Shown here one piece after another: positions 39,701 to 58,000 of a stretch of 64,000 nucleotides of DNA. Each line of letters opens with the position of its first letter. The first letter of the stretch is position 1. Below the pieces are notes generated by a model that ran no database searches, was not told the DNA's origin, and was given only the letters and a program-made list of their open reading frames with translations. A program made the translations under genes and the position numbers. This stretch comes from Tetraselmis striata (Eukaryota; Chlorophyta; Chlorodendrophyceae; Chlorodendrales; Chlorodendraceae). The DNA lies in contig VCJN01003151.1 of NCBI GenBank assembly GCA_006384855.1, forward strand, positions 310,001 through 374,000, read 5' to 3'.

Positions 39701-39866
39701 AGAGCTGGCTGGTGGCTCTTGCGCCGCAGCGACGATGCCTCCCCTCCCCTCTGCTACAATCCCCTGCCACGATTCCTATACGTGGCACCACACATGCGAA
39801 ACATGGAATCAGAAGCACGCGCCGCCGGTTGTGCTGCGCTTTTGTACATAGCGTTGCCTCCGTTAC

Positions 39867-40156
39867 TAATGAACTTTCAGACTAACAACAGGTGATTGCA
39901 CAGTGACAGTAGAGACTGTAAGGTTTGGTGGGAAACAAAGAAGTGATTACAATGTCAGTGATTCTAGAAATATTATAGTTGCTGGCTATTGCTGCACCTC
40001 ACGCTCTCAGCACTCCAATTGCTGGAGGGTTGTAGATTCTAAGGCTGTATCACAGCACATGTAAGCTCATGAGATTTTGCTGCAACAAGCAAGGCTGTAT
40101 CATTGTCTGGCTGTCCCTTTGTTGAACAATTGTGAATAGTTTCCTGCTTGACTGTA
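39867..40156 (-). repeat. LTR-like terminal repeat, lower-coordinate copy
   Basis: About 290 bp from the ACTTTCAGACTAACAACAGG block to TTTCCTGCTTGACTGTA, matching 56,028-56,318 in the same orientation at about 90 % by eye. It lies about 230 bp beyond the RNase H region, as a 3' LTR would for a minus-strand element. Confidence 0.75.
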
Positions 40157-40387
40157 CCCGGGTAGCACACTAAATCGCTGTGTAATATACAATTGCTATA
40201 CATTTATCATGTGTAAGTTCAGGTCCTGCCCTGAAGGGGCATGCCGTTATTAATCCTGCACTGACTACTGTCTCATTTAGTACATTCGTACAGATTATGA
40301 CTCAGTTACTTCGACCCCCCTCCTAACTGAGGACATGTGATGGATGACGACACATGCAGAAATGAATATATAATAATTGCACAGTGA

Positions 40388-43300
40388 TCAGCGCCTTTTC
40401 ACCACATTCATAATCCTAGTCGACTGAGGATTGCTGACCGGCTTGGTGAAGATATCAGCAAGCGTAGAGCTGCTGGGCTCGTAGTAGATCTTGATGATGC
40501 CATCCCTGTGGGCGTCGCGCACAAAGTGCAGGCGAATATCCAGGTGTTTGGTGCGGCTGGATGTGCTGCCCGTTGTCGCAATAGCAATGCATGCGTGGCT
40601 GTCTTCTGCAATGGGGGTTGGCAGTGTTTGCGGGAACCCTAACTCCCCCATCATTTGACACGGGAGCCTCAGCTGTGGAGAGGGTTACTAGGGGCTGCAG
40701 TTTGGAGGCATAACTGACAGCTGCGCCGCACATGATGAAGACGTAGCCGGTGGTGCCTTTGCAACTACTGCGATAAGTGGTCGCGTAGTTGGCGTCACTG
40801 AACCCAGTCACAAAGATTGAGCGTGCTTCCCCCAATAAAGGTGAGACCTTGACCATGTGTATGGCTGAGGTAGCGCAGGCGAGTTCTGGCGTCCTCTAGA
40901 TGCGAACGAGTGGGAGTGCACATAAACCGAGTGATACAATTGGTTGACTGTCTGGGTGATGTCTGGTTGTGTAGCAACTGATGCATAGAGTAATGCACCC
41001 GCAAGACTGCGGTGGTGTGAAGCCATATCGTTGTCCAGTGGTGGTGATACGCGGGGGTCGTTGGCGGATGTTGGCAGTGCGGTGGGCTTGCAGTTGTCCA
41101 TCCCGTAGCGCCGAAATAGGTCCTTAATATACTGACTCTGGTGAATGGTGATGGTGCGTGCTGACAGGTTGCGTTCAATGGCCACGCCCAACAGCCATCT
41201 GCAAGTCCCGAGACCCTTGATGTCAAAGGTGGCGCCGACAGCAGATTTGAAGTCGGCAATCCAGGTGGGTGGCGTGCTGCAGATCAGGATGTCGTCGACA
41301 TAGACAACAATAACGCTGAATATTTCGTTATGGTGTCAGTGCTGCGATAGCCACATGCGCCAGGGTCGGTTCTGAGTTGGATACAGCCTTGGCTGCGCAG
41401 CAAAAAGTTGAAGAAAAGAATCCAGCAGCTGCGGGGTGCCTGCTTGAGCCCATATATTGCCGCCTTGAGAAGGCAAACCAGGCGCGTGCCTTCCGTGCCG
41501 CGTTGAACAAATCCATCTGGATCCGTATAGATATCCTCCTCAAGGTTTGCATAGAGGAAAGCACAGTCAACATCAGTTTGCTCGCAATATGGAGGCCAAG
41601 GTGGGCAACAAGGCTGAAGATGACTCGGAGAGTGGGGAACTTAGGTGCGAAGGTCCCCGTGAAGTCCAGCCCTTGTACATGGGAAAACCCCTTTGCACAC
41701 ATGCGCGCCTTGTGCCGTGCAATGCTGCCATCAGCATGGTGCTTTGTTTTGAAAACCCATTTGCATTTGACTGTCTTTCTGCCAGCAGGAAGAGTGACAA
41801 GCTCCCGTGTGACGCGGCTGAGGAGGGAATCATATTCGGCTTGGATAGCGAGTTGCCATTCGGCAGCATGAGGTGAGGCGGGGGCCTCCCTGTAGGTCTG
41901 CGGGTCACCCGGGGATTCGCCTGCTACCAGTGCAGCTGGCAGCTGATATCCGTGTGAGGGGAACACATTGTCTGTAGCAGGAATTCTGACATTTGGTGTG
42001 ATGCTGCGGCGCGGTCGTGGAGCTGGGTTCAATTGTTGTTGGCTAGTGGTATCGCTGATCAGTGTGTCAGGCTGGCCGGTGGGGGACGACACCTGCTGCT
42101 GGTTGGTTGGCTGCATTACCGGCGCATGCCTCAGACTGGCTGCTCGGGTCAGCTGCGGTGGTGGATGTTGAGGTCGGAATCGGCTGCATCGGAATGGGCT
42201 GGCTAACAACGGGATCACTTGTCGAGTGTTGGGCTTTTGAGGAACTGGTGGTGCAGCTGGGGTTGTCGGACTAGGTGTAGGCTGGAGGGGAGCTTGCTGA
42301 GCAGGTTCCATCGGTGGCGGTGTGTGTCGTCGTTGCAGAGGGGCAATCGGGCACTGCAGGTTGTCGTCATCATCATCAGAAGAGTCGCTGTCCGAGGGAT
42401 GGATAGGCTGCCCCTCCTGAGGTGAGTGCCCCTCCCCAGTTGGCTGCCCCTGTTGAAGTGATGTATCTCCTGTACCTGCTGAGGAAGAGCTGTACCGCCC
42501 CTGATGAGTGGCTGCATGCCACTCATCAGGCAGCTCTGGATCAAATCGTCCGAGTCGGTCAGACTCGTTAAAGGCAACACTGCGACTGGACACCACCATT
42601 CGAGTGACATGCATCCACTGTTACCAGCCACGCTGGTGAATCATGTTAGTATCCCTCGAAGTTGCCTTCAAGCGAAGAGGCTGCAATCTTGTTGCGATTA
42701 ACGCGGGGCACGTACACGTAGGCTGGACAGCCAAATGTGTAAAGGGAGGAGAGGCACAGAGTAACGCCAGTGAGGCGACGCAGTGGGATGTCGCTGATAC
42801 CACGACGGAAGGTGTGCGATTATGTACATGCACAATGGTAGCCATGGCAAATTCCCAAAATTCGGCACCGAGGCCAGCGTAGTCTAGCATGCGTTAGGGT
42901 CCAGGTAGCTTGGGTATTATACCAAGTGCGCTCAAGTAAATCGTTATGGAATTGACTGTAGGGCGCAGCGTTTTCCCGACTGGTTCGAGATTCATCCGTT
43001 GCGAATAAGAACTCAGCGCTGCGAAATGCGGTTTCGTCAAGGCGCAGTGTTTCTAAGCGATCCTAACCCCGGGCTGAAGCCATGGTGCGATACGCTTTGA
43101 GGAAATTATTGGAGGCCGCGCGAGAACGGCAGGTGTAGAACGCCACGACTGAAGTGGCACAGTCGATGGCTCCGACCACTTGAGTAAATATCGCCTTGTA
43201 AAGATGGGACGTGATTCTGCCAGAAATCCCAGCCAGTGCGTTGAAATGGCCGTGTGGGCTTGACGTGCAGGCCTCTAGGACGGGGGGCGGCAGTTGATGT

Positions 43301-43577
43301 GATGAGGGCGCACGTCCGGCAGAACGGCAAAGAGCAGGGTCCGGCAGGAAGGATGTTTACGCCGCTGCGGGTAAGTGATGCCGTACCACGCCCGCTGATG
43401 TGTCCGAGACAAGCATGCCATAGTTGATGAGGTGATGTCATGTTAGCGAAGAGAGCAGTAGATGGAGGCATAGGAATAGGGCGGCGAGGCTTGGGCTGGA
43501 TGATGTGGGAGGAAAGGGTTCGTAGGCGCCCGTGGGTCAGGATGGGAACAACAGTTCTGTTGGGCAATAGGAGCCGA
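40388..43577 (-). mobile_element. Copia pol part: pre-integrase, integrase, RT and RNase H regions
   Basis: Recognisable parts on the minus strand: pre-integrase block (LWHACLGHISGRG) near 43,400-43,460; integrase C-terminal block (GAEFWEFAMATIVHVHNRTP) near 42,810-42,880; Pro/Ser-rich linker 42,000-42,600; RVT_2 block (KCKWVFKTKHHADGSIARHK, GFSHVQGLDF) near 41,640-41,800; RNase H block (SDANYATTYRSSCKGTTGYV) near 40,720-40,800. The region is a fossil with several interruptions. Confidence 0.8.
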
Positions 43578-43599
43578 CACTGTGAGATTCAGATGTGAC

Positions 43600-44161
43600 G
43601 CAAGTGTGCCCTACTGGTGACGAACGACGACATACGGGGACGATACGGGACGGACGAGGGACGTGGATTTCATACCCAGTAGCGACGACTATCGCGCGCG
43701 ACCTGTAAAGTACTATATGAATTTCTCGTTTCCATAATTTCATCAAATTGATATGCGCACGCGGGCTCGCGTGTCGCCCGCCGACGCGGAGTACCCGGGC
43801 TAAGTACAGGCGGCTGCAAGTACTCGCTGCACATCGCTGCACATCGCCGCGGTGTGCGGCGGTGTGCGGCACAACGGGCGGAGGTGTGGGCGGATGTAGG
43901 TGGTACGGTAGGTGGTAGGCGGTAGATAGGTGGTGTTCGTAGGTGCGCGTTTTAATGCAGCCGCCCTAACTGCTGATGATTGTGTAACGCCCATGCACGC
44001 GCATGAAGTACGGGGTCGCCTGGCGGTCACCGCCGCTCACCGCTGAACCAAGCGCGGACAGCCGCGCACTCGCATTTGTGCTCCCTGCCGGTGGTGGGCT
44101 ACATCCACCCCAACTCTCAACCCCCCCCCCCCCCCCCCCCCGCGCGCGCGCGGCAGCAGGC
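43600..44161. other. Left subterminal region of the CACTA-like element
   Basis: Contains repeats of GCACATCGC and GCGGTGTGCGGC near 43,825-43,872 and GGTGGTA-type repeats to 43,935. The reverse complement GCCGCACACCGCCGCACA occurs near 49,371-49,390 towards the other end. Such inverted subterminal motifs are typical of CACTA elements. A C run of ~22 nt lies at 44,120-44,141. Confidence 0.5.
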
Positions 44162-45590
44162 ATGCCGGGAGAGGGATGGATGTCGAGTGTGTCGAAGAAT
44201 GGCGTGTACACATGCAAGCACTGCCACGGCATCGTGACGGGCAGTAGTGAAAGGACGGCGCGAGAGCGGCACTTCCGGAAATACCCGAACTGTAGCCACT
44301 CGTTGAAGCGTGCGGCTAAGTTGCATTGCAAGGCCGCCTTATTACAAGCAGCAGCAGCAGGGCGGCAGCAGTAGCAGCAGCAGCGGCAGGGGCGGCAGCA
44401 GGAGTAGCTGCAGCCGTCGGAAACGGCCCGCCGGCGCCGGTCTCGGAGGACGATGTGATGGGTCTGGGGAAGGACCCCGTTGGCGAAGACGGTGTGGACA
44501 TCGACGCGCCTGCGTGGCCGCCGGCGGACGTGGAAGCTGCCGATGAGGGCGTGATACGGAAAGGCGATCCCGGTGACTTCTACATGAAGGCCATCGCCAA
44601 GAAGTTCCGGGGAGTATGGCACTACGGCGTGATAACCGGCGTCGTTACCGAGTGGGTGTTGGAGGACTACGGCGGGGCGACCCAGTGGCGCGCTGTTTTC
44701 GAGGACGGTGACATTGTGGACCTTCTGCGTTCAGAGGTGAGTGGGCCCGGCCTGCGTGCGGGTGGCACCACTCAACTGCGGTTGTATGGAATCACACGCA
44801 CCCGCCCGGTCGGCGTGGCAGGTTGTGGAGGCTATGGCGGCTGCCCATGAGCACCCCCCTGTGGATGCGGACGGGGATGCTCGCTTGGTAACCGTCCATG
44901 AAGGCGATGACTTGTCCAGTGAATCACGCACCTTGCCCGGCGTGCGTTCAACACAACCCGGCTGGCGGAGGCCAAGCACAACACTGGCTGCCATGGCGTG
45001 TGCCATGTGCATGTGGTCATGGGCTATGTCAGCATGGTCAACCTCTTCCCCCTCGCGCCGTTCCACCTGTTTTTATTTGGCTTGGGAAGGGACTTCTGGA
45101 GGAAATTTGTCACCGTGCAGGGTCACATTGGATTCCGAGCTATGAAGCAAGAAGACCGGCGCCAGGCTTTAGTCCCGATACCCAGCAACTTTGAACGCGG
45201 GTTGCGCCCTTCGTTTGCAGTGTCCAAGAATCGAAAGGTAACCCCCCCCCCCCCCCCCGGGCGTGGGCGTGCGTGGGCGTGGGCGTGACGGCATTCCCCT
45301 CCATGACTGCAGGGTCAGGCAAGGTGACGGTGCAGTCCGGCTCGGTCATGGAGGACTGCTTGAACCACATGGAAACGTTTTCCATTCTTAACGCCGGTCC
45401 GCTGCTCGAGGAGGCCCGGGTGAAGGCGATCATGACCGAGAAGGAGCTTCGCGTCCCCAGGCGGTGCTTGGGCACATGTACAAGCGCATGCAAGGAGCTG
45501 CGTGGTTCGTCACGCGGTGGGGGTTGCAGAATGTGGTGACGGAGGAGGACGGCCCCGAGCGCAAGGCGCAGGTGGACGCGCTCACCAGGG
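44162..45590 (+). pseudogene. CACTA-element gene: C2HC-type finger, DGD domain, tnp2-like block
   Basis: ATG at 44,162 starts a finger region (YTCKHCHGIV, REHFRKYPNCS-like spacing C-x2-C...H...C). A CAG-rich tract (44,341-44,410) follows, across which the sensible frame changes. The next block, GDFYMKAIAKKFRGVWHYGV...WRAVFEDGDIVDLL, resembles Tudor/agenet-like DGD domains of plant and algal transposon proteins. A donor follows at 44,737 and an acceptor at 44,821 (VVEAMAAAHEHPP). Further blocks are GCHGVCHVHVVMGYVSMVNL with FPLAPFHLFLFGLGRDFWRK, then AVLGHMYKRMQGAAWFVTRW up to the minisatellite. The FPLAPFHLFLFG block recalls tnp2-type transposases, which suits a CACTA element, but this is a weak match. 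At least three frame changes make the copy non-functional. Confidence 0.5.
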
Positions 45591-45610
45591 AGGGGAGGAC
45601 TCTAGACCCA

Positions 45611-45760
45611 GCGCGGCGCCAAGGCGCAGCGGCCGGGGCAGCGCGGCGCCAAGGCGCGGCGCCAAGGCGCGGCGGCCGGGGGAGCGCGGCGCCAAGGCGC
45701 GGCGGCCGGGGCAGCGCGGCGCCAAGGCGCGGCGGCCGGGGCAGCGCGGCGCCAAGGCGA
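45611..45760. repeat. 30-bp GC-rich minisatellite, second array
   Basis: About five units of GCGCGGCGCCAAGGCGCGGC plus GGCCGGGGCA, with one 12-bp partial insertion. The unit differs from the 5,461-5,610 array at only about four positions. Confidence 0.8.
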
Positions 45761-46490
45761 GTGGGATGGGCGGGGCAGCGGTTGCCACCGAGTGAGGCGT
45801 AGCATCGTTTGCAGTAGCAACGCAGCCTTTCCGGTTGCATAGTGTGACGCCGCCTGGATGTAACCCAGCAGTACGCGCAAAGTGCAAATGCAAGCTGCTG
45901 GTGGCGGGGATCCACGCGAGGTCGCAGGACGGTGCGCGAGGGGGGGGGGGGGGGGGGGGCAGCGGCTGTGGGATAGGCGGGGCAGCGGTTGCTACCGAGT
46001 GAGGCGTAGCATCGTTTGCAGTAGCAACGCAGCCTTTCCGGTTGCATAGTGTGACGCCGCCTGGATGTAACCCAGCAGTACGCGCAAAGTGCAAGTGCAA
46101 GCTGCTGATGGCGGGGATCCCGCGGGGGGGGGGGGGGGGGGCAGCGGCTGTGGGATAGGCGCGGCAGCGGTTGCTACAGAGTGAGGCGTCGCATCGTTTG
46201 CAGTAGCAACGCAGCCTTTCCGGTTGCATAGTGTGACGCCGCCTGGATGTAACCCAGCAGTATGCGCAAAGTGCAAGTGCAAGCTGCTGGTGGCGGGGAT
46301 CCACGCGAGGTCGCAGGACGGTGCGCGAGGGGGGGGGGGGGGGGGGGCAGCGGCTGTGGGATAGGCGGGGCAGCGGTTGCTACCGAGCGAGGCGTAGCAT
46401 CGTTTGCAGTAGCAACGCAGCCTTTCCGGTTGCATAGTGTGACACCGCCTGGATGTAACCCAGCAGTACGCGCAAAGTGCAAGTGTTACA
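45761..46490. repeat. ~185-207-bp tandem repeat with poly-G runs, ~3.9 units
   Basis: Each unit contains GGCAGCGGTTGC, CGTTTGCAGTAGCAACGCAG and GGATGTAACCCAGCAGTA. G runs of roughly 17-19 nt occur at 45,941-45,959, 46,125-46,141 and 46,329-46,347. Copies are nearly identical apart from G-run length and a short deletion in the third. Strong quadruplex-forming potential. Confidence 0.85.
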
Positions 46491-46527
46491 CGTCCGTGTG
46501 CCCCACCCAATGACATTGCGCCCGACC

Positions 46528-47250
46528 TCACTGACGGCATGTCTCGCTCTCCTTCAGCTCCTGGGCCGTCCGCCGCCTCACCCTGCGCACCCCACCAGCC
46601 GCGCGTGCCTTCTCGGAAGCCTCACACACGGCGGCGCGAGTCGCGTCGTGGAACGCGTCCCTGACATGGCGGAACTCCGCCCTCACCGTGGCCGTGGTCG
46701 GGCAGGGGACTGCCCGTTGATGGGTCGCCATGCATGGGTAATTGGGGCCGCACAAAGCCGGGGTGCCGTCGCAGCAACACTCCCAGTCCGTCCGTTGGCC
46801 GCAGTCCACGCACATGATAGTGCATGTGGCCGCCTCCCGCCACTGCTCGTAGTGCTCCGGTCAACATGGCGACGAGCAAGTCGGCATGTCCCGCAGGTGG
46901 CTGCGGGGCGGGTGGCGCGAGCACAGCCTCGCTCGCCTCAACAACCCCCTCAGCCCGATCAGTCGCCTCGACCACGGCCTCCTCCGCCTCCTGACGCGGC
47001 GCACCAGGCGCATCATCGTCGCCTGGCAGGGCGTCCCCCCCCGCAACGGCGCCGTCGGCGGTGGCCGACGCCGTCGTGGCGGGGTGTTGTGAGGAGGTGG
47101 CCCTAGACATAGGTGGGGCCGGCACCGCCATGTGTTGCTCCACATGCGGTGCGGTTCCTGACGCGACAGCTCCGTCGCACCAGTACCGGCGCCGGCACCC
47201 CACGCCTGCTAGGCTTACCACCAACCGGCATGTTTCCTTTGGGAGGCGGT
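46528..47250 (-). pseudogene. Cys-rich ORF inside the CACTA-like element
   Basis: Minus-strand reading: an Ala/Glu-rich segment (VEATDRAEGVVEASEAVLAP) from about 47,220 to 46,850. After a frame change near 46,850 comes a dense Cys/His cluster (MCVDCGQRTDWECCCDG, LCGPNYPCMATHQRAVPC) at about 46,690-46,815, followed by a basic tail ending at 46,528. The Cys spacing suggests a zinc-binding domain of unknown kind. It could be a second transposon protein or a captured gene piece. I do not recognise a family. Confidence 0.4.
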
Positions 47251-48139
47251 TCATTCGCGTCGGAGGTGAGCGGCGGTGCCAGTGTGGGTGTGAATACTGC
47301 CCGGCCATTAGGGCTCCCGCCGCATGCCGCTCCGCCGACCCACGCCGCGGCGTGTGCTGCGCCCCGCATAGTCGCCTCGAATATATTATACATGACGCGG
47401 GGACGGGGGGGGGGGGGGGGGATTCGTGCGTTTCGTATGTCGGCGGAACGGCGTGCGAAGCTGCGGCTGGCGAAGGTGGTGGAAGTAAGCGTGGCGGCGT
47501 CGGCGGCGTATTACCGTGCGTGCATGCGTGCGCAACCCCGCGGCAGCAAGCCCCGGACTCGGCGTGTGCCGGCGGCAGAGCTGCGAAGCCATGGACACGG
47601 TACGGGATGCCAAGTCTGGCTAAGCAACTGCCGAGGCTGGCGGCTTAACCCCCATGTCCGGCGGTTGAGGGACGGAAAGTGCGTAGAAGTTGATCGGCAA
47701 AGCGGGCATATAAGCCTGGCTGTGCTAGGTTCCTATTAAGTAATGGCGGTTTGTGCTAAGTAATTCGTAGGGGTGGACCAGGCAGCGCAGGTAGGGGGCG
47801 GTATAAATGAGGCCGGGCACATATACTGCTCCACGAATCGACACTGTGGCACGTGTAGTTCAATAGACCCCCCCCCCCCCCCCCCCCCCCACCCCCCGCC
47901 GGGTCGGCCCGCCGGGTCGGCCCGCCGACCCGCCACGGCATGTAATATCTGTCATGCATCGCCGGGGTATGTGTGAGTGGATGCCCCGCCGCCACATCCC
48001 CCCCCCCCCCATTTACACTTGTGCACTCATTAAGTTTGGGCTGGTTTCGGAGCAGTACATGTACGTATGTATATACATACAATGGAACGTAGGACCTGCG
48101 TGGAAAGAGGCGGGGCTGGCGGAGTGCGTTGGGGGTGCG
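47251..48139. other. Spacer with long G and C runs
   Basis: A ~16-nt G run at 47,405-47,420 and a ~21-nt C run at 47,869-47,890. A plus-strand frame (MSAERRAKLRLAKVVEVSVA, 47,437 onward) is open but not recognised. Confidence 0.4.
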
Positions 48140-49265
48140 TAGAGTAGCGTGTTGGTGAGATTCGGGGTGCATCGGACGCCGGATGCCCATCCACCCGGCG
48201 TAAAAGGCGCGTACGTAATATTCACACTATATTAACACACAAATGTGTGAAAACCGGACATTCCGTGCCGGATGGGTGGGAATACGGCGTCCGATGCAGC
48301 CAAAACCCTAGCAACACGCTATTCTATGCACCGCCAATGCACTCCGCCAGCACCGCCTCATTCTCCGTCGATTTCGAAAACGCCTTCACATTATCCACCG
48401 CTAATAATTGCAATTGCCACCGTGTAATGTTGTCACGATGTGCGCACACAACAACACTTACTACCGGTTCCGACGCGGATGGAGGCGGGGCTTGCGGAGT
48501 GCGTTGGCGGTGCACAGACTAGCGTGCTGCAAATAATTGGGGTGCATCGGACGCCGGATGCCCATCCACCCGGCGTAAAAGACGCGTAATATTCACACTA
48601 TATTAACACGCAAATGTGTGAAAACCGGACATTCCGTGCCGGATGGGTGGGAATACGGCGTCCGATGCAGCCAAAACCCCAGCAACACGCTATTCTATGC
48701 ACCGCCAATGCACTCCGCCAGCACCGCCTCATTCTCCGTCGATTTCGAAAACGCCTTCACATTATCCACCGCTAATAATTGCAATTGCCACCGTGTAATG
48801 TTGTCACGATGTGCGCACACAACAACACTTACTACCGGTTCCGACGCGGATGGAGGCGAGGCTTGCGGAGTGCGTTGGGGGTGCGTAGAGTAGCGTGCTG
48901 CAACTAATTGGGGTGCATTGGACGCCGGATGCCCATCCACCCGGCGTAAAAGACGCGTAATATTCACACTATATTAACACGCAAATGTGTGAAAACCGGA
49001 CATTCCGTGCCGGATGGGTGGGAATACGGCGTCCGATGCAGCCAAAACCCCAGCAACACGCTATTCTATGCACCGCCAATGCACTCCGCCAGCACCGCCT
49101 CATTCTCCGTCGATTTCGAAAACGCCTTCACATTATCCACCGCTAATAATTGCAATTGCCACCGTGTAATGTTGTCACGATGTGCGCACACAACAACACT
49201 TACTACCGGTTCCGACGCGGATGGAGGCGAGGCTTGCGGAGTGCACTGGCGGTGCACAGACTAGC
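48140..49265. repeat. 371-bp foldback repeat, three tandem copies plus a leading half
   Basis: GTGTGAAAACCGGACATTCC starts copies at 48,246, 48,617 and 48,988, exactly 371 bp apart and almost identical. Within each, the left ~110 bp (GGATGGGTGGGAATACGGCG, CGTCCGATGCA, ACACGCTATTCTATGCACCG) is mirrored by the right ~110 bp (CGGTGCACAGACTAGCGTG, TGCATCGGACGCCGGATGCC, CCATCCACCCGGC). Each unit can therefore fold into a long hairpin. A partial unit (48,100-48,245) precedes the first. This is a foldback/MITE-like element amplified in tandem. Confidence 0.85.
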
Positions 49266-49689
49266 GGGAGACTAGATCCATTGTCGCTTATTTACAAGCA
49301 CGGGCGGTGCTGCCAGACCTGATCGTCTACGGCCGATATAATATTCACACTATATTAACATCGGTGCACACCGCCGCACACCGCCGCACAACGCTGCGCG
49401 CGCACATTCGTCGCGCACATATACGCGCGCCCTACCGCACACATTATCCCGGATTCACTCGCCGTATCCATTACGCCGTGCTACTTCAACAATAAACATT
49501 GCGAAATTACACCGACACAATGCCGCACCGACTAGCTCTTGACAATACGTGCATATAAATAGTAGTGGCGCGCTGCTCCTCGCCTCCGATGTGTCGTTGA
49601 CTGCTGCGGAAGGCGGTCGTCGACTGGGTGTTAGTTTCTCCACCTCGCCCCCCCCCCCCCCCCCTTTCACCGCTCACAGCGCCATGGCC

Positions 49690-49972
49690 GACCTCGCCCC
49701 CCCGGGCAAAAGTGGGCGGCGAGCCTTGTTGTCTCGCGTGTCCGCGCCGCCGGCATCGAGGAGGACGAGAAAGACATGAGGAAACGCGTGACAAGGTGGG
49801 CGCGCAACAAAACACTCCATCCTCCACATTAGCACGCACCCACTCGTGGCTAACTTGTGCCGCGCGCAGGTTCGTCCGGGAGCGCCGTAAGGCCCACCTC
49901 AACGCCAAGGCTTCCACAGTGCCAGCGGCGCAACTCGTGGTGGCCGAGGAGGCCGCATCCTCAGCCGCTTAA
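49690..49972 (+). CDS. Small two-exon ORF, unknown, basic
   Basis: Blocks GQKWAASLVVSRVRAAGIEE and DEKDMRKRVTR end at an AG|GTGGGC donor near 49,794. They join in phase to FVRERRKAHLNAK and VPAAQLVVAEEAASSAA, ending in TAA at 49,970-49,972. The acceptor is CGCGCAG at 49,863-49,869. The nearest ATG (49,684) is out of frame across a seven-C run, so the start is uncertain. Lies inside the CACTA-like element and may be the 3' part of one of its genes. No family recognised. Confidence 0.4.
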
Positions 49973-50045
49973 AGGCGAAACGATTGTGGCTTGTTGTTGG
50001 TGTCTGGGCACAAGGGGGCGTCCCGACGCGAAGGTAAGGAAGCTC

Positions 50046-50261
50046 ATGGCGGCGTCGTCGACGGCACAGCCTCCCGGGGTGGTGAAGACACTGACGGATG
50101 ATAAGAAGCGGAAGAGGCCAGTGAAGAAACGCCGAGGTAAGAAACTGACGGTCGCGGAGTCGGAGGCGGAGTCGGAGGCGGAGGCGGAGGCGGAGGCGGA
50201 GGCAGCGAGATCGTCGAAGCGGAGGGTCCCCCGGGCACGCAAGAACAAGAACAAGCAGTAG
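50046..50261 (+). CDS. Basic/acidic low-complexity ORF, unknown
   Basis: A frame in phase with the preceding stretch reads MAASSTAQPPGVVKTLTDD, DKKRKRPVKKRRGKKLT, then an (EAESEAEA)n run and SSKRRVPRARKNKNKQ before TAG. The charge pattern suggests a nuclear or nucleic-acid-binding tail. It may be the last exon of a gene of the CACTA-like element. Real coding status is uncertain. Confidence 0.35.
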   Translation: MAASSTAQPPGVVKTLTDDKKRKRPVKKRRGKKLTVAESEAESEAEAEAEAEAARSSKRRVPRARKNKNKQ

Positions 50262-50949
50262 CCCCCGCCCCCTTACCCCCCTCCCCTCACTCCCCCGGCG
50301 GGAGCGGCGGGGGGGGGGGGGGGGGGCGGCGGGGGGACCACGCCCGCCCGCCTCCCCCCCCCCCCCCCCCCCGGGCCACATTCCCCGATGGCAGCTGTCG
50401 CGAATATTGTAATTCAATCATTCTTCGGCAAACCGCTGCCTGCCCCCGCCCTACCCCTCGCGAATATTTATGTAACGTGAGCACTCTTTGGCAAAACATG
50501 GCAGCCAAACCGCCCATCTGATGACCTTTGATCGGACGGCTGGCAGGCCCGTTCAGCAGTACTAGCTACAATGTACACAAAATTCCCCAGTGTTACCAAA
50601 TACAACGGCTGCGATTTGCGCTCCCATGTACTAATAGTCGTAGTTATCCACAGGACCACTCGTCATCGTGCCCGGGTACCGGGTACCGGGTACTAGATAC
50701 CCGGTACCGGCTCAATAAATATATCGCGTACTACCCGGTACTACACGGACAACCTTGTACCTTATACGTCAGTGCCATGTAACAATTTACCGGGCTAGTA
50801 CGACTACCAGAATGATGACAAAAAGGATTTATCGCCCGCCGGCAATAACGCCGGATGTACTCGCACGTAACTGGATGGACGTGCCGCCACCAGCAGCAGC
50901 CTTCACGGATAAATAATAGTCGCTAGTAGTAGTGCTTCGTCACCCGTAT
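50262..50949. other. Right subterminal region of the CACTA-like element
   Basis: Holds a G run and C run (50,308-50,373), two CGCGAATATT sites (50,399 and 50,459) and tandem GGTACCGGGTACCGGGTA-type repeats at 50,668-50,710. No gene seen. Confidence 0.5.
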
Positions 50950-50971
50950 GTCACATCTGAATCTCACAGTG

Positions 50972-52097
50972 CGAGGCTTCGGTAGCTGTTCGGATAATCT
51001 CGAGACCGGCATTGGCATCCCATGCTTGGCGGCTGCTGAATAGCCGCCGTGTTGTGTGTCCTTGTTGGTCGTGGCGGCAAGGTCGGGGACATGGAGGCAG
51101 TGCTGAAGATTAATGCGCACTGGTGTCCCTGTGTTATCCTGCAGGTAGAGGTGGGCGTTGTCCCCCCCAACCGTTGTCCAGGCACAGTGTTTGTAAGCGA
51201 TACTAACCCCGGGCTGAAGCCATGGTGCGGTTCGCTTTGAAGCAATTCGTTGAGGCCGCGCGAGAACGGCAGGTGTTGAGCGCCACGACCGAAGTGGCAT
51301 AGTCGATGGCTCCGACCGCATGAGTGAACATTGCCTTGCAAAGATGTGACGCGATTCTGCCAGAAATCCCAGCGAGTAGTGCGTTGAAATGGCTGTGTGG
51401 GCTTTGCGCGTAGGCCTCTAGGACGGGGGGCGGCAGTCTATTTGATCACGTCAGGCAGAACGGCAGAGCGGGTGCGGCATGAAGGCTGTTCACGCCGCTG
51501 CGGGTATGTGATGCCGTACCACGCCCACTGATGTGCCCGAGACGAGCATGCCAGAGTTAAAGAGTATTCGGTGTGGGCTATGTCATGTTAACGAAGAGAG
51601 CAGTAGATGGAGCCATGGGGGTATAGCGGCGAGGCTTGGGCTGGATGATGTGGGAGAAAAGGGTTCGTAGGGGCCGGTGTGTCAGGATGGGAACAACGGT
51701 TCTGTCGGGCAATAGGAGCCGAGGCTTCGGTAGCTGTTCGGATAATCTCGAGACCGGCATTGGCATCCCATGCTTGGCGGCTGCTGAATAGCCGCCGTGT
51801 TGTGTGTCATTGTTTGTCTTGGCAGCAAGGACGGGGACATGGAGGCAGTGCTGAAGATCAATGCGCACTGTTGTCCCTGTGTTATCCTGCAGGTAGAGGT
51901 GGATGTTGCAGTCCCCGACTGCGTATGCGCCGAGGCCGTTCATCCAACGGCGTGGAATGGTGCGGTACTCTGCGAAGTCGTTCGAAAAGTTGCGCGGTCA
52001 TGTGTGTAGTCGCGCCAGTGCCAAACACCCACATGTCTGAAAATGACTGAATGCTGTCGTGTGCTGAGTGAGCGACAGATGAAGTAATGGCAGACAC
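50972..52097 (-). mobile_element. Copia protease and pre-integrase parts, duplicated segment
   Basis: A protease block (MWVFGTGATTHMTAQLF) lies near 51,980-52,040, followed on the minus strand by the chain HLYLQDNTGTTVRIDLQHCL and pre-integrase sequence. A stretch of about 0.75 kb here (51,185-51,960) duplicates 43,051-43,577 plus 50,972-51,180, the two parts split by the CACTA-like insertion. Fossil; interrupted. Confidence 0.7.
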
Positions 52098-52286
52098 AAG
52101 CCATCAACAGAAATTGGAATCCACGCAAGCGCCGGATTCCAAAATCCCAGCAGGCTGCGCCGAGTGTCTTCCGACAAGGCAGGATGTTGCAGCATGCTGT
52201 CGGGATAACCCATAGCGATAGCCCGAACATCACAGCATGGTTTAGTCCACTCCCCGCAGAGTCTGAGCATGCCGCGGCCAGGGCCA

Positions 52287-53000
52287 TCAGGATGGGTGAC
52301 ACGGTATGCATAGCTGCCGCGTCGAGAGACAAACTTCGGGCAGATTCTGTTTTGCAAATGTGGTGGCGCCTACCTGGCACGCAGGTGAGAAGCCATACTG
52401 CTTGATGAGGTCACTGACCGGTGGTGGACGGCAAAGGGAGGAATGAAAGTGTTGCTGACGGGTATAGGTGTCAAGGATGTTGGTCCATAGTAAGATAATC
52501 CGACGAGCCGAAGAGCCGAGTTCGTGAGCACATGCAAGGAATGGATCCTCAAGAGCAGCGCGCAATGCGGGGAATCGCGCCGCCCCAGGTCCATTTTCAA
52601 TGATATAGTTCAATACCCCACGTTGTAGTTTGGTAAGCTGGGCAATGATGTCACACACAGCGTAGAAGGGCGTGGCGTACGGGTCGCGAAGTCCATGTTG
52701 CAGTCCGGCAGTAGAGAAGGGACTGCATGGTGGAGTAGCGGTGACTAGATCGACATACGGAAGTTGGACGAGATGCGCGCCGGTGATGGACATGATGTCT
52801 TGAGGAAGCCGCGTATGCGCTGCTTGCACTGCAGACGGTGGAAGCGTGTCAGGTGATGCAGAGCACAGCTTCAGAAGCTCAATTATGTCCATGGCGTCAC
52901 GTGCAGTCTCGTCCGAGTCCACCAAGGTGAGCATGCCAATAGGCAGACCGGCCGCTGCAATGTGACTGGTGAACCCTGGCACAGCGCCAGAAGAAAGGAG
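52287..53000 (-). mobile_element. Cytosine-5 DNA methyltransferase region of the copia element (DRM/DNMT3-like)
   Basis: Minus-strand parts recognisable in order: a motif I-II-like stretch (GLPIGMLTLVDSDETARD), motif IV with the catalytic Pro-Cys (VTATPPCSPFSTAG), motif VI (ENGPG) and motif VIII-like RRIILLWTN. An R-x(4)-W-x-N ending of this kind is characteristic of DNMT3/DRM-type enzymes (RxRxxWxN) rather than DNMT1 (PQxRxR). The region sits between Gag and protease in the same orientation as both. Retrotransposon-borne C5 methyltransferases are known from a charophyte alga and from Symbiodinium. The enzyme would methylate DNA in the nucleus; whether this copy ever did is unknown. Confidence 0.7.
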
Positions 53001-53198
53001 AAGGATATGAAGTGGCGCCGGTGTTTAAAAGTAGACGCTAAAGGCTGGAAGTGGAGCACTGGCGGGGGTGGTGCCGGTCCAGATTCAGTGGTTTGTAGAG
53101 CTGTGTTCTCATTCGCGATGAGTGCGCAATCAGTACAAGGACTGGATGTGGGAAATGTGGTGACTTGTTGGCGGTCAGCGGCCACGGCAGTGTTCCAA

Positions 53199-54485
53199 TC
53201 AGAAGCGGCAAGGGGCTGCTGTTGGACTTCCGCAAAGACTGCGCTGTAGAATGACTGCATAATTGGGTAGCAAGGGTCCATGGGGCGCTGTGACGGTCCA
53301 GCGCGCCAAAGGGCGCGATAGAGCTGCATCTGCCAAATCAGTCTCATTGTCGTAGTGGATGCAGGGTATGTTGTGGAAACCCTGCGCCACAAGCCGCCTT
53401 GTAAGAGCGTTGCCACGCAAATCACGGCGAATGCCCCAGTGGCAGCGCAGACGGGTGCCGCAGATGGGAAACGCAGAAAAGTCAGGGATGCGTCGGCTGT
53501 CGGCAACATCGGACAAGTTGCTGAGCTCCGCCTGAAAGGCTCCGTGCCACACATGCTAGGCAGGAGCTTGGACAGGAACACGGCGCCACTTGCCGCAGGC
53601 AATGCTGCCACAAGCCCGGCGACGGATGTAGTTGATGAGGCGAGTGGCTGGTGGAGGTGGAGGTGGAGTGAAGTCCGGCATATCCCGAAGGTGAGCCGCA
53701 ATTGCAGCATTGAATGCAGCATCACGCAGGCAGGTAGTATCGGCGCGGTGGCGAGCGGAGCGCATACGATTGCGGTTGCGACGCTGGTATGTGGTATCGC
53801 GAAGCCGTGCGCCACAAGGCACGTGCGTGTTGTTGATGCGATCCAGCGCCACGTGAGTCAGGTCGATGCGGGGTTGGTAGGCATCGAGGTCTGCAGTAGA
53901 GAACGTGTCGTTGTCGTTTGGCGAGGCGGCGTCTTCGACATAGAGAATGCGGTAACGGGAGACTCGATTGTTGATAGGCATGGCAACGACCCGCAGTTCG
54001 GCTTGCTGCTGAAAGTCCGCCATCTCCACATCGTAGCTGCGCTGACGGGCTGCAGCTTGTGACACCTAGAAGGGATCCGCATGGCGCTTGAATGGACGCT
54101 GGATGGGAAACGGCTGTTGGAGGAAGATCATGGACGGAGGAAGAGGTGCCTCGGCCTGCTTAATCGCAGAGGGCGAGGTACAACGAATGAAGTGAAGGAC
54201 GGAGTCCTCATACTCCTTTCCGTGTGCGTTTGCATCCGCCTCTATCACGGCGGTGGCAGCAAGGTCACACGCGAGGTCGGCCTAGTCGAAGGCCCTCTGA
54301 GCAGCCGTGATGTCCGCAGGGTAGTGACGATAGCTGGCGCGCACTCGTCGGGCAACCAAGCGGGACACTAAGTTGAAGCTTGTTGATGGGCGACGCTAGC
54401 AGTGTCGGTGCGGAGCTGAGCGGCCATGGCATCGACACCGTTCATCTCAACCACCAAAGTAGCCATAGCGATGGATGGCAGAGAG
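53199..54485 (-). mobile_element. Copia element region of unknown function between Gag and methyltransferase
   Basis: Protein-like blocks on the minus strand include YDVEMADFQQQAELRVVAMP, YRILYVEDAASPNDND and IPCIHYDNETDLADAALSRP. No domain was recognised; part may belong to the methyltransferase protein's N-terminal region. Fossil. Confidence 0.5.
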
Positions 54486-55767
54486 TTAGTGTGTGGCAAT
54501 AGGTGAAGGGCGGGCTGCACAGGCGCGGCGGAATGAATCGAGGTGGCGCTCATCAGTTTTGTCGTCGCAGATGTCGTCACTGATTTCGGCGCATTTCGGA
54601 TGACTCGGAGGTGAAGTGTCGAATAAGGTATCAGCAGTGGCAACGCTGTTGTCTTCACATGTATAGTTGACTGGCTTCTCGACCTGGGCTACCATGTCCC
54701 ATGGGACAGTGCCACCAGCTGAGGGCTCAGGGGCAGGTGAAGTTGAATTGATGCCAACAACCACGGCGGTGTCGCTTGCTCCAGAGCGCTCCCGGCGCTC
54801 GATGTCGCGCTTCCTCTTGAAACACTCGTAGTCCATGGTGTGGCCACGCTTGTCGCAGAACTTGCAGATGGGCACGTCTCCACGTGGGCGTGACGGCGGT
54901 GGCGGGGCGTTATTGCCAAGCGCGCGACGGAAGAAACCATGCTCTCCATGTTGGTGCTCAGCATCTTTAGGGTGGACAGGATGGCAGAGTTGGATTCGAC
55001 GGCGACATTTGAAGAGCCGTCTGCTGCAAACGTTGAGGTAGGCTGATCAGCGGGCTCTGGATCCACAGTAAGCATGGAGTCCCTGGCATGTTGGACAGCG
55101 GCATCAAGGGTGGTAGCAGTGACAGCTTCAGTAGGAAGCATCTGCGCAGCGGTTCGGAACTCGTCGCGAAGGTCCTTGATGAACGCGACGACTAGCGTTG
55201 ACTCATCAGGCGCCTTGTCCATGCACTCCAGCTCCATACGCACCATGTTAAGACGCTTCTCGTAATCCGTGAGGTCCTCGGTTATCTTCGTTCGCATGCG
55301 TAGCGCCTCATTACAGGCTGAGCACGAAAGCGAGGTGACCGTAGAAAGGTGGCGAGAAGCGCGTCGATCGCTATACGACCACGCACTACGGGGTCGGTGC
55401 TGACGGTGAAGCGGAGAAGCTCGGTTCTGGCTTGCTTGTCTAGAACGATCTGGTTGAGGATAGACATGAAGGTAGCATGATGTTGTGGGCTGGTATCAAT
55501 AGTCCATAGCTCATCAAAGCCCGGCTTGGAACTGACATCCGCCTTGACTTGCAGCCACCGGACCAAAGTGCCAGTGGCCTCCTTGGCATTGTGGAGAGGA
55601 AGGTGTTTGAAGCCCTTGAGGCGAAGAGGGGCCACAGAGGAGTCATGGTCGGCAGGCATGCTGACAGGCGAGTTGAGAAGCTGGAGCGATAGAAAGAACA
55701 AGTTGTTGAAGCACAGAAAGATGTAGTTGGTTGGAGCTGTAGCAGGCAGAACTGCAGCAGCATGTAT

Positions 55768-55770
<3 letters not shown>
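54486..55770 (-). mobile_element. Copia Gag region with zinc knuckle
   Basis: Minus-strand parts: an N-terminal Gag block (LKGFKHLPLHNAKEATGTLV), a UBN2-like core (MELECMDKAPDESTLVVAFI, LRDEFRTAAQML) and a CCHC-type knuckle (CKFCDKRGHTMDYEC) near 54,830-54,875. This is the copia Gag arrangement. The leader between Gag and the LTR holds a (GA)n tract at 55,769-55,813. Fossil. Confidence 0.75.

Positions 55771-55813
<43 letters not shown>
55769..55813. repeat. (GA)n microsatellite in the element leader
   Basis: About 44 bases of GA dinucleotide between the LTR-like repeat and the Gag region. Confidence 0.9.
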
Positions 55814-55817
<4 letters not shown>

Positions 55818-56027
55818 GTGGGCAGCAATGTCAACATGGGACCAAGGCTGGGACAGCTGTGTCGAGCCGACGAGCAGGTGAGTGTCGTGTAGAGCACAGT
55901 TGAAGAAGGCAGTTGGTGATACCAAGTACAGGCACAAAGCTCACAGGTGAGCATGTATGTGTGCAGATCACAGGTGGCAGAGAAGGTAACTGGAGAAGGC
56001 AGCTTTCAGTGAGAGGGCCCATAGCTT

Positions 56028-56318
56028 AATGAATTTTCAGACTTACAACAGGTGTGATTGCACAATGACAGTAGAGACTGCAAGATTTGGTGGGAAACAA
56101 ACTAGTGATTACAGTGTTAGCGATTTTAGAAATATTTAGTTGCTGGCTATTGCTGCATCTCACGCTCTCAGCACTCCAATGGCTGGAGGGTTGTAGATTC
56201 TAAGGCTGTATCACAGCACATGCAAGCTCATGAGAATTTGCTGCAACAAGCAAGGCTGTATCATTCTCTGCTTGTGCCTTTGTTGAACAACTGTCATTAG
56301 TTTCCTGCTTGACTGTAT
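56028..56318 (-). repeat. LTR-like terminal repeat, higher-coordinate copy
   Basis: Matches 39,867-40,156 in the same orientation at about 90 % by eye and lies upstream of the Gag region for a minus-strand element, as a 5' LTR should. Confidence 0.75.
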
Positions 56319-58000
56319 CGTACATGTGTTATATTTAATACTGCGTTCTATATTTACTAAGCGGCGCTTCGCGCCGGGGATTTGTGGAGGTGCCCCTACC
56401 TCTTGGGTTGAGCCTGGTGCGGGCTGCGGGCCGCTTTTAGCCGGCTTGTAGTGTTGATCTTGTAATACTGTTGTTTCCTGGTAATACTCCTTTTAGCGTT
56501 AGATTTGTCAGTAATTTATTTTTAAGAGAAGTCTTAATTTGTAAAACATATTAAATCTGCAAGTGTCACAACGTACAACGTTTCAGCGTACGCATGCGCG
56601 CGTACAGGGACTTGCTTACTTGGCATACCGGCGAATACTCGTCGCCTGTCATACGGGTATCAATTTTAGTACTTGCAGTACTGCGTTGTATGTGTATGCC
56701 TGATGTCCAAGCGAGCAGTCACCCATGGCGCAACGACCAACTGTCTGTCGCTCAGCTCTCACCTAGAACCACCGACAGACCTAGGGCCCGTACCAACGGC
56801 TAACTTCCGCCAACCACGGCGCCCGTGCAGACCAATAGCGCGTGGGAAGGCCTAGGGGCTTAGTCGGCTCGCGCGCCCGCGGAATGCTTTAGCATCCTGT
56901 CGGCGCGCTGCCCGACCACTCTTTGGCTTTCCAAACGTCTCATCCCACCCATCTTGTAACCACGCTACTACACCACAAACACCTCGACTCTGTGCACATC
57001 ACACATGCACGTGCCTCGTCTATTGCTGTCCATCAAGGGCAGTACAACCTGCTGTCGAGCTGCGAGTGATATCGCGCAGCAAGCAACGGTGGTGAGTCGC
57101 GGTTACACCTGTGTTTGCGTCGTGACGCCCGTCTTGCTTTTACCTCCTGTGAACCCGTCGCACCGACTGCCTGGACTTGTCGACCGACCGACCGACCAAT
57201 TAGCGTACCGAACGTGCATGATCAGCACTGGCTTGCTTGTTGCCATATGCGAGCAGTCGGTACTGCGCGTCGTCGTCGTCGAGTCGTGTCGTGATACCGT
57301 ACGCGTACGCATATGCGCGCGTGCGGGCACTCGTAGTCCATTCGCGAGAGGCATGTCGTGCGGCACAGGGTGAGGAGTGCTTGACGTATTTCGCGTCGAT
57401 CGACCACACACACACACACACCTCTGTCACGCCGAGTAACCAAGCAACTCGCACGCGTGTGTAGTGCCGGCCAATAGGGCCGATGACACTGTGAGACGTA
57501 CTTCTACTGGAGTCATAGGAACCGAGGCCAAGAGTCAGCAAGTCTTAGACAGAGACTTAGAGGCCAGGACACGTACATAAGACCACATGCCTAAGAGTCT
57601 GTTAGGCGATCGTTTGGAAAGCCAAAGAGTGGCTGTTCCTAAGTGGTCTTAGTCCTGAACGCCCACACCCCAATACCCCCACTTAGACGCTGACCTCGAG
57701 GTTGTTCAGGGGACGCCCTCACCTCCTGCAGTCAGCCACGTCTTCACAACTGGAGGGAGCAAGTCATCACAGTGCAACGTTCATCGGCGCCGATCTTCTG
57801 CGCTATTGTTGGCAAGGCACTGTGCAAGGCGCGCGTAGGAGGCATCGCCTACACCTACAACGCGTGCAACGAGCTGAGAGGAGCCGCGTGTGGTGGTTAC
57901 CTCAGCCTGGAGCGCGTTCGTCGGCAACCGCTTCATCAACCTGTTCAGTCCAGACTTCCGCGCGCCAATTGGGGGGGGGGGCGGTCACTGAGCAAGGCGC
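56319..58000. other. Spacer / possible leader of the next LTR element
   Basis: No supported gene. Contains a perfect 22-bp inverted repeat (56,916-56,937 and 57,611-57,632, beginning CCACTCTTTGGC), a (CA)n tract near 57,407-57,421, and open low-complexity frames on both strands. Confidence 0.4.

What the first reader, a model, noticed from the sequence alone, without database searches (positions are those of the whole stretch)
52287..56318. A copia-type retrotransposon that carries a DRM/DNMT3-like cytosine DNA methyltransferase
Seen: PPCSPFSTAG (motif IV), ENGPG (motif VI) and RRIILLWTN (motif VIII-like) lie between a copia Gag with zinc knuckle and a copia protease, all in one orientation and flanked by LTR-like repeats. 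Known: C5-methyltransferases have been found in retrotransposons of Klebsormidium and Symbiodinium, but such cases are few. Inference: the element could have methylated its own DNA, either to tolerate host silencing or to mask its copies. The Gag-MTase-protease order and the DRM/DNMT3-like ending may be a separate acquisition.
Basis: partly seen in the sequence, partly recalled or inferred. Interest (0 to 1): 0.85.

Follow-up and report, generated by a model that had tools for sequence, protein, structure and literature searches.

The report
Copia retrotransposon carrying a DNA methyltransferase
A jumping gene in the genome of a green alga (probably Tetraselmis striata) carries its own enzyme of the kind that puts methyl marks on DNA; the copy in this window is old and broken, but intact young relatives exist elsewhere in the genome.

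Summary
The genome matches Tetraselmis striata gene models (three at 99-100%, one at 94%). The methyltransferase (MTase) sits in an old, broken Ty1/copia element on the minus strand, running from about 39,867 to at least 56,317 and split by a 7.4-kb insert; integrase and RT lie at 40.4-43.6 kb. Elsewhere the MTase lies within single open frames of 2,011-2,483 codons, between Gag and protease. Of 19 stretches fetched, 12 held elements with LTRs 98.5-100% identical; 12 of 12 have 5-bp target duplications. The MTase is DNMT3-like by profile and fold; its canonical motif order excludes DRM. MTase and RT trees agree, suggesting long co-inheritance. At least one copia family lacks it and spreads. 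CpG mutation between copies is no higher in MTase carriers than in MTase-free ones. MTase-carrying retrotransposons are known (Klebsormidium Gypsy; Symbiodinium LINE and DIRS; PMC5890265), so this is a new variant. Most likely role: methylating the element's own cDNA; inferred, not shown.

The parts
39867..40315 (-). 3' LTR of the element
   Evidence: 39,867-40,156 is 91.4% identical to 56,027-56,317 over 292 columns; 39,866-40,315 matches the LTR of the C551 relative
40406..41930 (-). reverse transcriptase and RNase H region, in shifted frames
   Evidence: tblastn of relatives' polyproteins; Pfam RVT_2 1.8e-10 in frame 41,328-42,620
42601..43577 (-). GAG-pre-integrase and integrase region, in two frames
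   Evidence: tblastn; DNA match to L010/L011/L012 ending at 43,577
43578..50971 (.). 7.4-kb insert that splits the element (not part of it)
   Evidence: DNA matches to three relatives stop at 43,577 and resume at 50,972-50,981
50972..51171 (-). second copy of the 51,720-51,919 piece, at the insert border
   Evidence: direct repeat D6, 93% over 200 nt; 95% over 189 columns
51173..52133 (-). protease (Pol beta-barrel) region and what follows it
   Evidence: tblastn to residues about 1102-1420 of the L016 polyprotein
52145..52369 (-). C-terminal part of the MTase (motifs IX-X), frame -1
   Evidence: tblastn: L022 residues 808-878 and L023 932-1005
52374..53060 (-). MTase core, motifs I to VIII, frame -3
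   Evidence: 46.6% identical to L016 residues 795-1028; PF00145 3.4e-7 in frame 52,287-53,024
54486..55830 (-). Gag region in three overlapping frames, with a zinc-knuckle-like CxxC....H.....C
   Evidence: frames; no matching Pfam hit; DNA match to the same region of L010/L011; assignment by position and pattern
56027..56317 (-). 5' LTR, the part that pairs with the 3' LTR

Best explanation
The window holds an old, inactivated copy of a Ty1/copia LTR retrotransposon whose single Gag-Pol frame includes a DNMT3-like cytosine-C5 methyltransferase between the Gag zinc knuckle and the protease. Shown: the domain order in intact relatives, independent insertions with 5-bp target duplications, recent activity (identical LTRs), agreement of MTase and RT trees, and purifying selection between families. 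Inferred: as part of Gag-Pol the MTase is packaged into the virus-like particle, where it methylates the element's own cDNA during or just after reverse transcription, so that the new copy enters the nucleus already marked. In three families and in the window copy the LTRs have few CpGs while the bodies keep them, which would let the body be methylated while the promoter escapes; this link is a lead only.
Against: No activity was measured. CpG transitions are 1.1-2.2 times other C/G-site transitions per site in MTase carriers and 1.9-2.0 in MTase-free copies, so no MTase-specific footprint; six young LTR pairs give 3 at 114 CpG sites against 5 at 1,149 others, too few to weigh, and two old LTR pairs show no clear excess. 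A copia family without MTase is abundant and recent, so the MTase is not needed to transpose here. LTR CpG depletion is absent in families L022 and L023, which carry the MTase (0.83, 0.86), and weaker in L010 of the window's own family (0.55); only one MTase-free family was measured (0.92). Family L023 has a degenerate motif I, and in L022 the proline before the catalytic Cys is a Cys. HaeIII MTase (2e-8) and DNMT2 (3e-8) score close to DNMT3A. In PMC5890265 the Klebsormidium Gypsy MTase and the SymbioLINE MTase gave no methylation in yeast (called inconclusive there).
Confidence: 0.5

Rival explanations
1. The MTase acts on the host genome rather than on cDNA: it marks new insertions for silencing (self-restraint) or alters host chromatin to the element's benefit.
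For: SymbioDIRS MTases methylated both yeast genome and plasmid (PMC5890265 section 10); many MTase copies in this genome.
Against: Position inside Gag-Pol next to the nucleocapsid favours packaging over a free nuclear enzyme (inference). No CpG loss in this 64-kb window: background CpG o/e 0.97; the rest of the genome was not measured.
Confidence: 0.2
2. The MTase acts on RNA, as DNMT2 does: it modifies the packaged genomic RNA or a primer tRNA.
For: As a single sequence the window frame matches DNMT2 best among solved structures (4e-4); de Mendoza et al. raise RNA for SymbioLINE.
Against: With an alignment DNMT3A becomes the best match and the fold comparison puts DNMT3 first.
Confidence: 0.12
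3. The domain is a catalytically idle nucleic-acid-binding or structural part of Gag-Pol.
For: Motif I is degenerate in family L023 and motif IV reads PCC in L022; dN/dS of the MTase is higher than that of RT.
Against: The catalytic Cys and the key residues of motifs VI, VIII and X are invariant in the eight aligned MTases, young families included.
Confidence: 0.13
4. The MTase region is a separate host gene into which a copia element fell.
For: None beyond the broken state of this copy.
Against: The MTase lies inside one open frame with Gag and Pol in many insertions, 12 of which were shown to be independent.
Confidence: 0.01

Closest known systems
KnitGypsy-Dnmt3 of Klebsormidium nitens (PMC5890265 section 9)
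   Same: LTR retrotransposon of a green-lineage alga with an unrearranged DNMT3-type MTase in the polyprotein, under purifying selection
   Different: Gypsy superfamily, MTase in the Pol frame, repeat structure described as DIRS-like; here copia, ordinary LTRs, MTase between Gag and protease, chlorophyte host
SymbioDIRS-Dnmt3 of Symbiodinium (PMC5890265 sections 6, 7, 10)
   Same: DNMT3-type MTase in the same frame as RT, many copies, no significant CpG loss against DIRS without DNMT
   Different: DIRS with tyrosine recombinase; activity shown in yeast; that paper says the Symbiodinium copia elements lack DNMT
SymbioLINE-Dnmt (PMC5890265 section 6)
   Same: retroelement with a C5-MTase; a LINE-like element with an MTase also exists in this genome (L024)
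   Different: MTase in ORF1 upstream of RT, orphan clade, CpG-depleted; in L024 the MTase follows RT and a PCIF1_WW domain
Retrotransposon DNMT3s mentioned in Sarre et al. 2025 (PMC12344493 section 5)
   Different: the cited 2018 paper calls the streptophyte element Gypsy; Tetraselmis does not occur in the main text; supplements could not be read here, so a copia case in their data is not excluded

Membership tests
Ty1/copia LTR retrotransposon | two LTRs and a 5-bp target duplication | tested here: met
   12 of 12 relatives with LTR pairs; the window copy has the LTR pair, its target duplication was not looked for
Ty1/copia LTR retrotransposon | integrase upstream of RT; RT of RVT_2 type | tested here: met
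   RVT_2 in 5 of 6 polyproteins scanned (L018 ends before it), rve in 5 of 6 and always upstream; window
Ty1/copia LTR retrotransposon | Gag with CCHC zinc knuckle | tested here: met
   above Pfam's cut-off in L016, below it in L018, L019 and L020, none listed in L022 and L023; window copy pattern only
C5 cytosine methyltransferase (PF00145) | profile match, motifs I, IV, VI, VIII, X in order | tested here: met
   L020 scores 18.5 bits, below the cut-off of 22
DNMT3 | groups with DNMT3 rather than with other C5-MTase families | tested here: inconclusive
   best by profile and by fold; no full cellular DNMT3 sequence was at hand for a tree, and a tree with one DNMT3A segment was badly gapped and put it among bacterial MTases with weak support
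DRM | rearranged motif order, VI-X before I-V | tested here: not met
   canonical order in all nine aligned sequences, one of which starts after motif I
Known DNMT retrotransposons (Klebsormidium, Symbiodinium) | same element superfamily: Gypsy, LINE or DIRS | tested here: not met
   copia by RVT_2 and integrase-before-RT order
Active DNA methyltransferase | methylates DNA | not testable with these tools
   needs an enzyme assay or a methylome

The most novel reading that the evidence does not exclude
One lineage of DNMT3-like MTases belongs to retroelements themselves rather than to any one host: it entered a copia ancestor before the Tetraselmis families diverged, has travelled with the RT since, also passed between copia and a LINE that carries a second, PCIF1-like domain, and works by methylating the element body while CpG-poor LTRs keep the promoter free.
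Probability: 0.2. Interest if true: 0.82.

Novelty: new variant of a known kind. Interest (0 to 1): 0.56.

Why it matters
It adds the copia superfamily and a core chlorophyte to the few retrotransposons reported to carry a silencing-type enzyme, with young intact copies, an MTase-free copia family and an internally deleted copy in the same genome. That set makes the open question of why a transposon would carry a DNA methyltransferase directly testable in an alga.

Tried and rejected
DRM: rejected on motif order. Chance frame and separate host gene: rejected. Viral origin: one scan of viral contigs kept 80 of 109 relatives, all matched over part of the domain at 26-64% identity. My motif VIII pattern matched none of the printed frames, but it was too narrow: L034-L037 and L039 read QNRKRLYWTN. 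The five viral MTases put in a tree fall outside the retroelement group. PHROGs and NCBIfam gave generic MTase models and a few chance-level ones.

CpG footprint of self-methylation: tested between copies, in LTR pairs and against MTase-free copies; not MTase-specific. LTR CpG depletion: seen in families 1-3 and the window copy, weaker in L010, absent in L022 and L023; one MTase-free control family only (L110); kept as a lead. One search, meant to find more MTase-free copia families, listed mostly L023-like rows (78 of 1,345 candidates scored) and I identified no new family from it. DNMT1-RFD search of the genome: no hit, but the control set was empty too, so it shows nothing. DRM did not appear among the 50 rows; that is no test. 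Rfam and tRNA scans of the window found nothing.

Full report
Names used. Family 1: L014-L017, L028. Family 2: L018, L019. Family 3: L020, L021, L026. Families 4 and 5: L022 and L023. Window family: the window copy, L010, L011, L012. The families are my grouping.

What was checked. The minus-strand frame 52,287-53,024 contains the three quoted motifs and matches PF00145 at 3.4e-7. Among solved structures a single-sequence search gives weak DNMT2 matches (4e-4).

Host. A search with an intact relative found four proteins named jgi/Tetstr1, three 99-100% and one 94% identical in the MTase region. I take this as Tetraselmis striata (reading of the JGI code recalled; lineage: Chlorophyta, Chlorodendrophyceae). 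The species rests on this alone; the rRNA search did not complete.

Extent of the window element. Three relatives (C551 = L010, C1047 = L011, C2711 = L012) align by DNA at 81-94% over pieces from about 39,866 to 43,577 and from about 50,972 to 56,330 or beyond. The LTR pair 39,867-40,156 / 56,027-56,317 is 91.4% identical. Relatives' polyproteins align in order along the minus strand: MTase 53,060-52,145, protease region, then after the insert integrase, RT and RNase H to 40,406, in several frames. RVT_2 hits frame 41,328-42,620 at 1.8e-10. The copy is dead by frame breaks and is old.

Intact relatives. A search with the window MTase reports 151 matches, the window included (447 first-look candidates, 150 scored, so a lower bound); 25 rows lie in open frames of 2,011-2,483 aa with no stop, and one in a 3,505-aa frame that proved LINE-like. 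All 12 have a perfect 5-bp target duplication, 12 different sequences, and LTRs beginning TGTTG (small shifts of the borders were allowed). Pfam on six polyproteins, at E <= 0.01: zinc knuckle 4 of 6 (one above the cut-off) - DNA_methylase 6 of 6 (L020 below the cut-off) - Pol_BBD 5 of 6 - gag_pre-integrs 6 of 6 - rve 5 of 6 - SH3 6 of 6 - RVT_2 5 of 6 (L018 ends before it). The protease motif DSGATSH follows the end of the MTase closely in L016. The several hundred residues between knuckle and MTase give no BLAST match between L016 and L019.

History. RT and MTase trees give the same unrooted topology for seven elements: (L016,L019), L020, then L010, then P0005, then (L022,L023); the nodes at L010 and L020 are weak in the RT tree (46, 73) and better in the MTase tree (79, 93). 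MTase-free L110 joins the branch to L022/L023 (89), so it is either a loss or an outgroup. In the protein database (profile search, 7,997 candidates scored), 73 hits: 25 Tetstr1 models, four strong hits from other sources (P0018, P0026, P0031, P0033) and 44 weaker ones (1e-8 to 1e-3). P0005, a copia polyprotein of 2,106 aa from an unnamed source, is 35% identical in the MTase and has PF00145 between CCHC and Pol_BBD. In a tree of 25 sequences the copia, LINE and fragment MTases separate from the five bacterial and five viral ones with full support, and the LINE MTases fall among the copia ones with weak support for the exact place (43-81). The element type of the fragments P0018, P0026 and P0031 is not known, and DNMT3 is missing from that tree.

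Selection and footprint. MTase dN/dS is 0.24-0.29 between family 1 and families 2 or 3 (dS 1.7 or more; saturated between 2 and 3), 0.26-0.42 in pairs with family 5, and within families there are too few changes to tell; RT 0.09-0.20 among families 1-3, 0.23-0.35 with 4 and 5. CpG o/e inside elements is 0.80-0.97; window background 0.97. CpG transitions exceed other C/G-site transitions per site by 1.1-2.2 in MTase carriers and by 1.9-2.0 in MTase-free copies. Six young LTR pairs show 3 CpG transitions at 114 sites against 5 at 1,149 others: suggestive but tiny. LTR CpG o/e: families 1-3, 0.13-0.40; window copy 0.16 and 0.31; L010 0.55; L022 and L023 0.83 and 0.86; MTase-free L110 0.92. With so few families this is a lead.

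MTase is dispensable for spread. One copia with a 1,561-aa frame, L110, was read in full: no MTase, and 392-bp LTR pieces 100% identical. At least 40 of the 150 RT rows listed lie in frames of exactly that length, which I take as the same family. A family-3 copy, L112, lacks residues about 220-1,226, MTase included, and has 99.55% identical LTRs; whether it moved in that state is not known.

Literature. PMC5890265 (abstract and sections 6, 7, 9, 10, 11 read) reports the Klebsormidium Gypsy and the Symbiodinium LINE and DIRS cases, activity of SymbioDIRS MTases in yeast, and copia elements without DNMT in Symbiodinium. PMC12344493 (passages and section 5 read) has one sentence naming LTR Copia; I cannot tell whether it means an element like this one or the earlier Gypsy one. 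PMC9998398 (passages) reports DNMT6 transcripts in three Tetraselmis and DNMT5a in T. astigmata. PMC6338049 (passages) discusses accessory domains; copia is not in its main text. Searches listed no paper whose title or shown abstract reports a copia element with a DNMT in Tetraselmis; most listed papers were not opened, and the library lacks most subscription journals and preprints.

Verdict. A real, multi-copy, recently active copia group with a built-in DNMT3-like enzyme; the window copy is a relic. Confidence: anatomy about 0.97, DNMT3-like about 0.85, methylation of own cDNA about 0.45.

Noticed in passing
L024:1-7695 (C2687): A LINE-like element in the same genome with RVT_1, PCIF1_WW, DNA_methylase and RNase_H in one frame (2,565 aa in the stretch, 3,505 aa); P0007 has the same set plus an endonuclease domain, P0006 has RVT_1, DNA_methylase and a near-cut-off endonuclease.
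   Followed up: partly
LTRs of L014-L023, L026, L028, L010; window 39867-40315 and 56027-56317: LTRs of families 1-3 and of the window copy are CpG-poor while the bodies are not; L010 is intermediate, two other MTase families and one MTase-free family are not CpG-poor.
   Followed up: partly
window 43036-43577 / 51176-51722 and 50972-51160 / 51720-51908: Pieces of the element are present twice on either side of the 7.4-kb insert (85% and 95% identical), as if two copies had been joined or the insertion came with a duplication.
   Followed up: no
window 48214-49255: Three tandem copies of a 371-bp unit, 98-99% identical, inside the insert, with partial inverted matches.
   Followed up: no
window 57992-60886 (+): A 964-aa open frame with a zinc-knuckle-like stretch and DTGCDYSG near its end, perhaps Gag and protease of another retroelement; no Pfam hit above cut-off.
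   Followed up: no
G000:C1993, C776, C1647, C2337, C355, C1455: Six C5-MTases in single 325-aa frames matching nearly all of PF00145, unlike the retroelement ones, plus others of 323-341 aa; origin not examined.
   Followed up: no
L112 (C553): Family-3 copia copy with the MTase and neighbouring residues missing but nearly identical LTRs.
   Followed up: partly
L034-L037, L039: Viral contigs with a C5-MTase that reads QNRKRLYWTN where DNMT3 has motif VIII.
   Followed up: no
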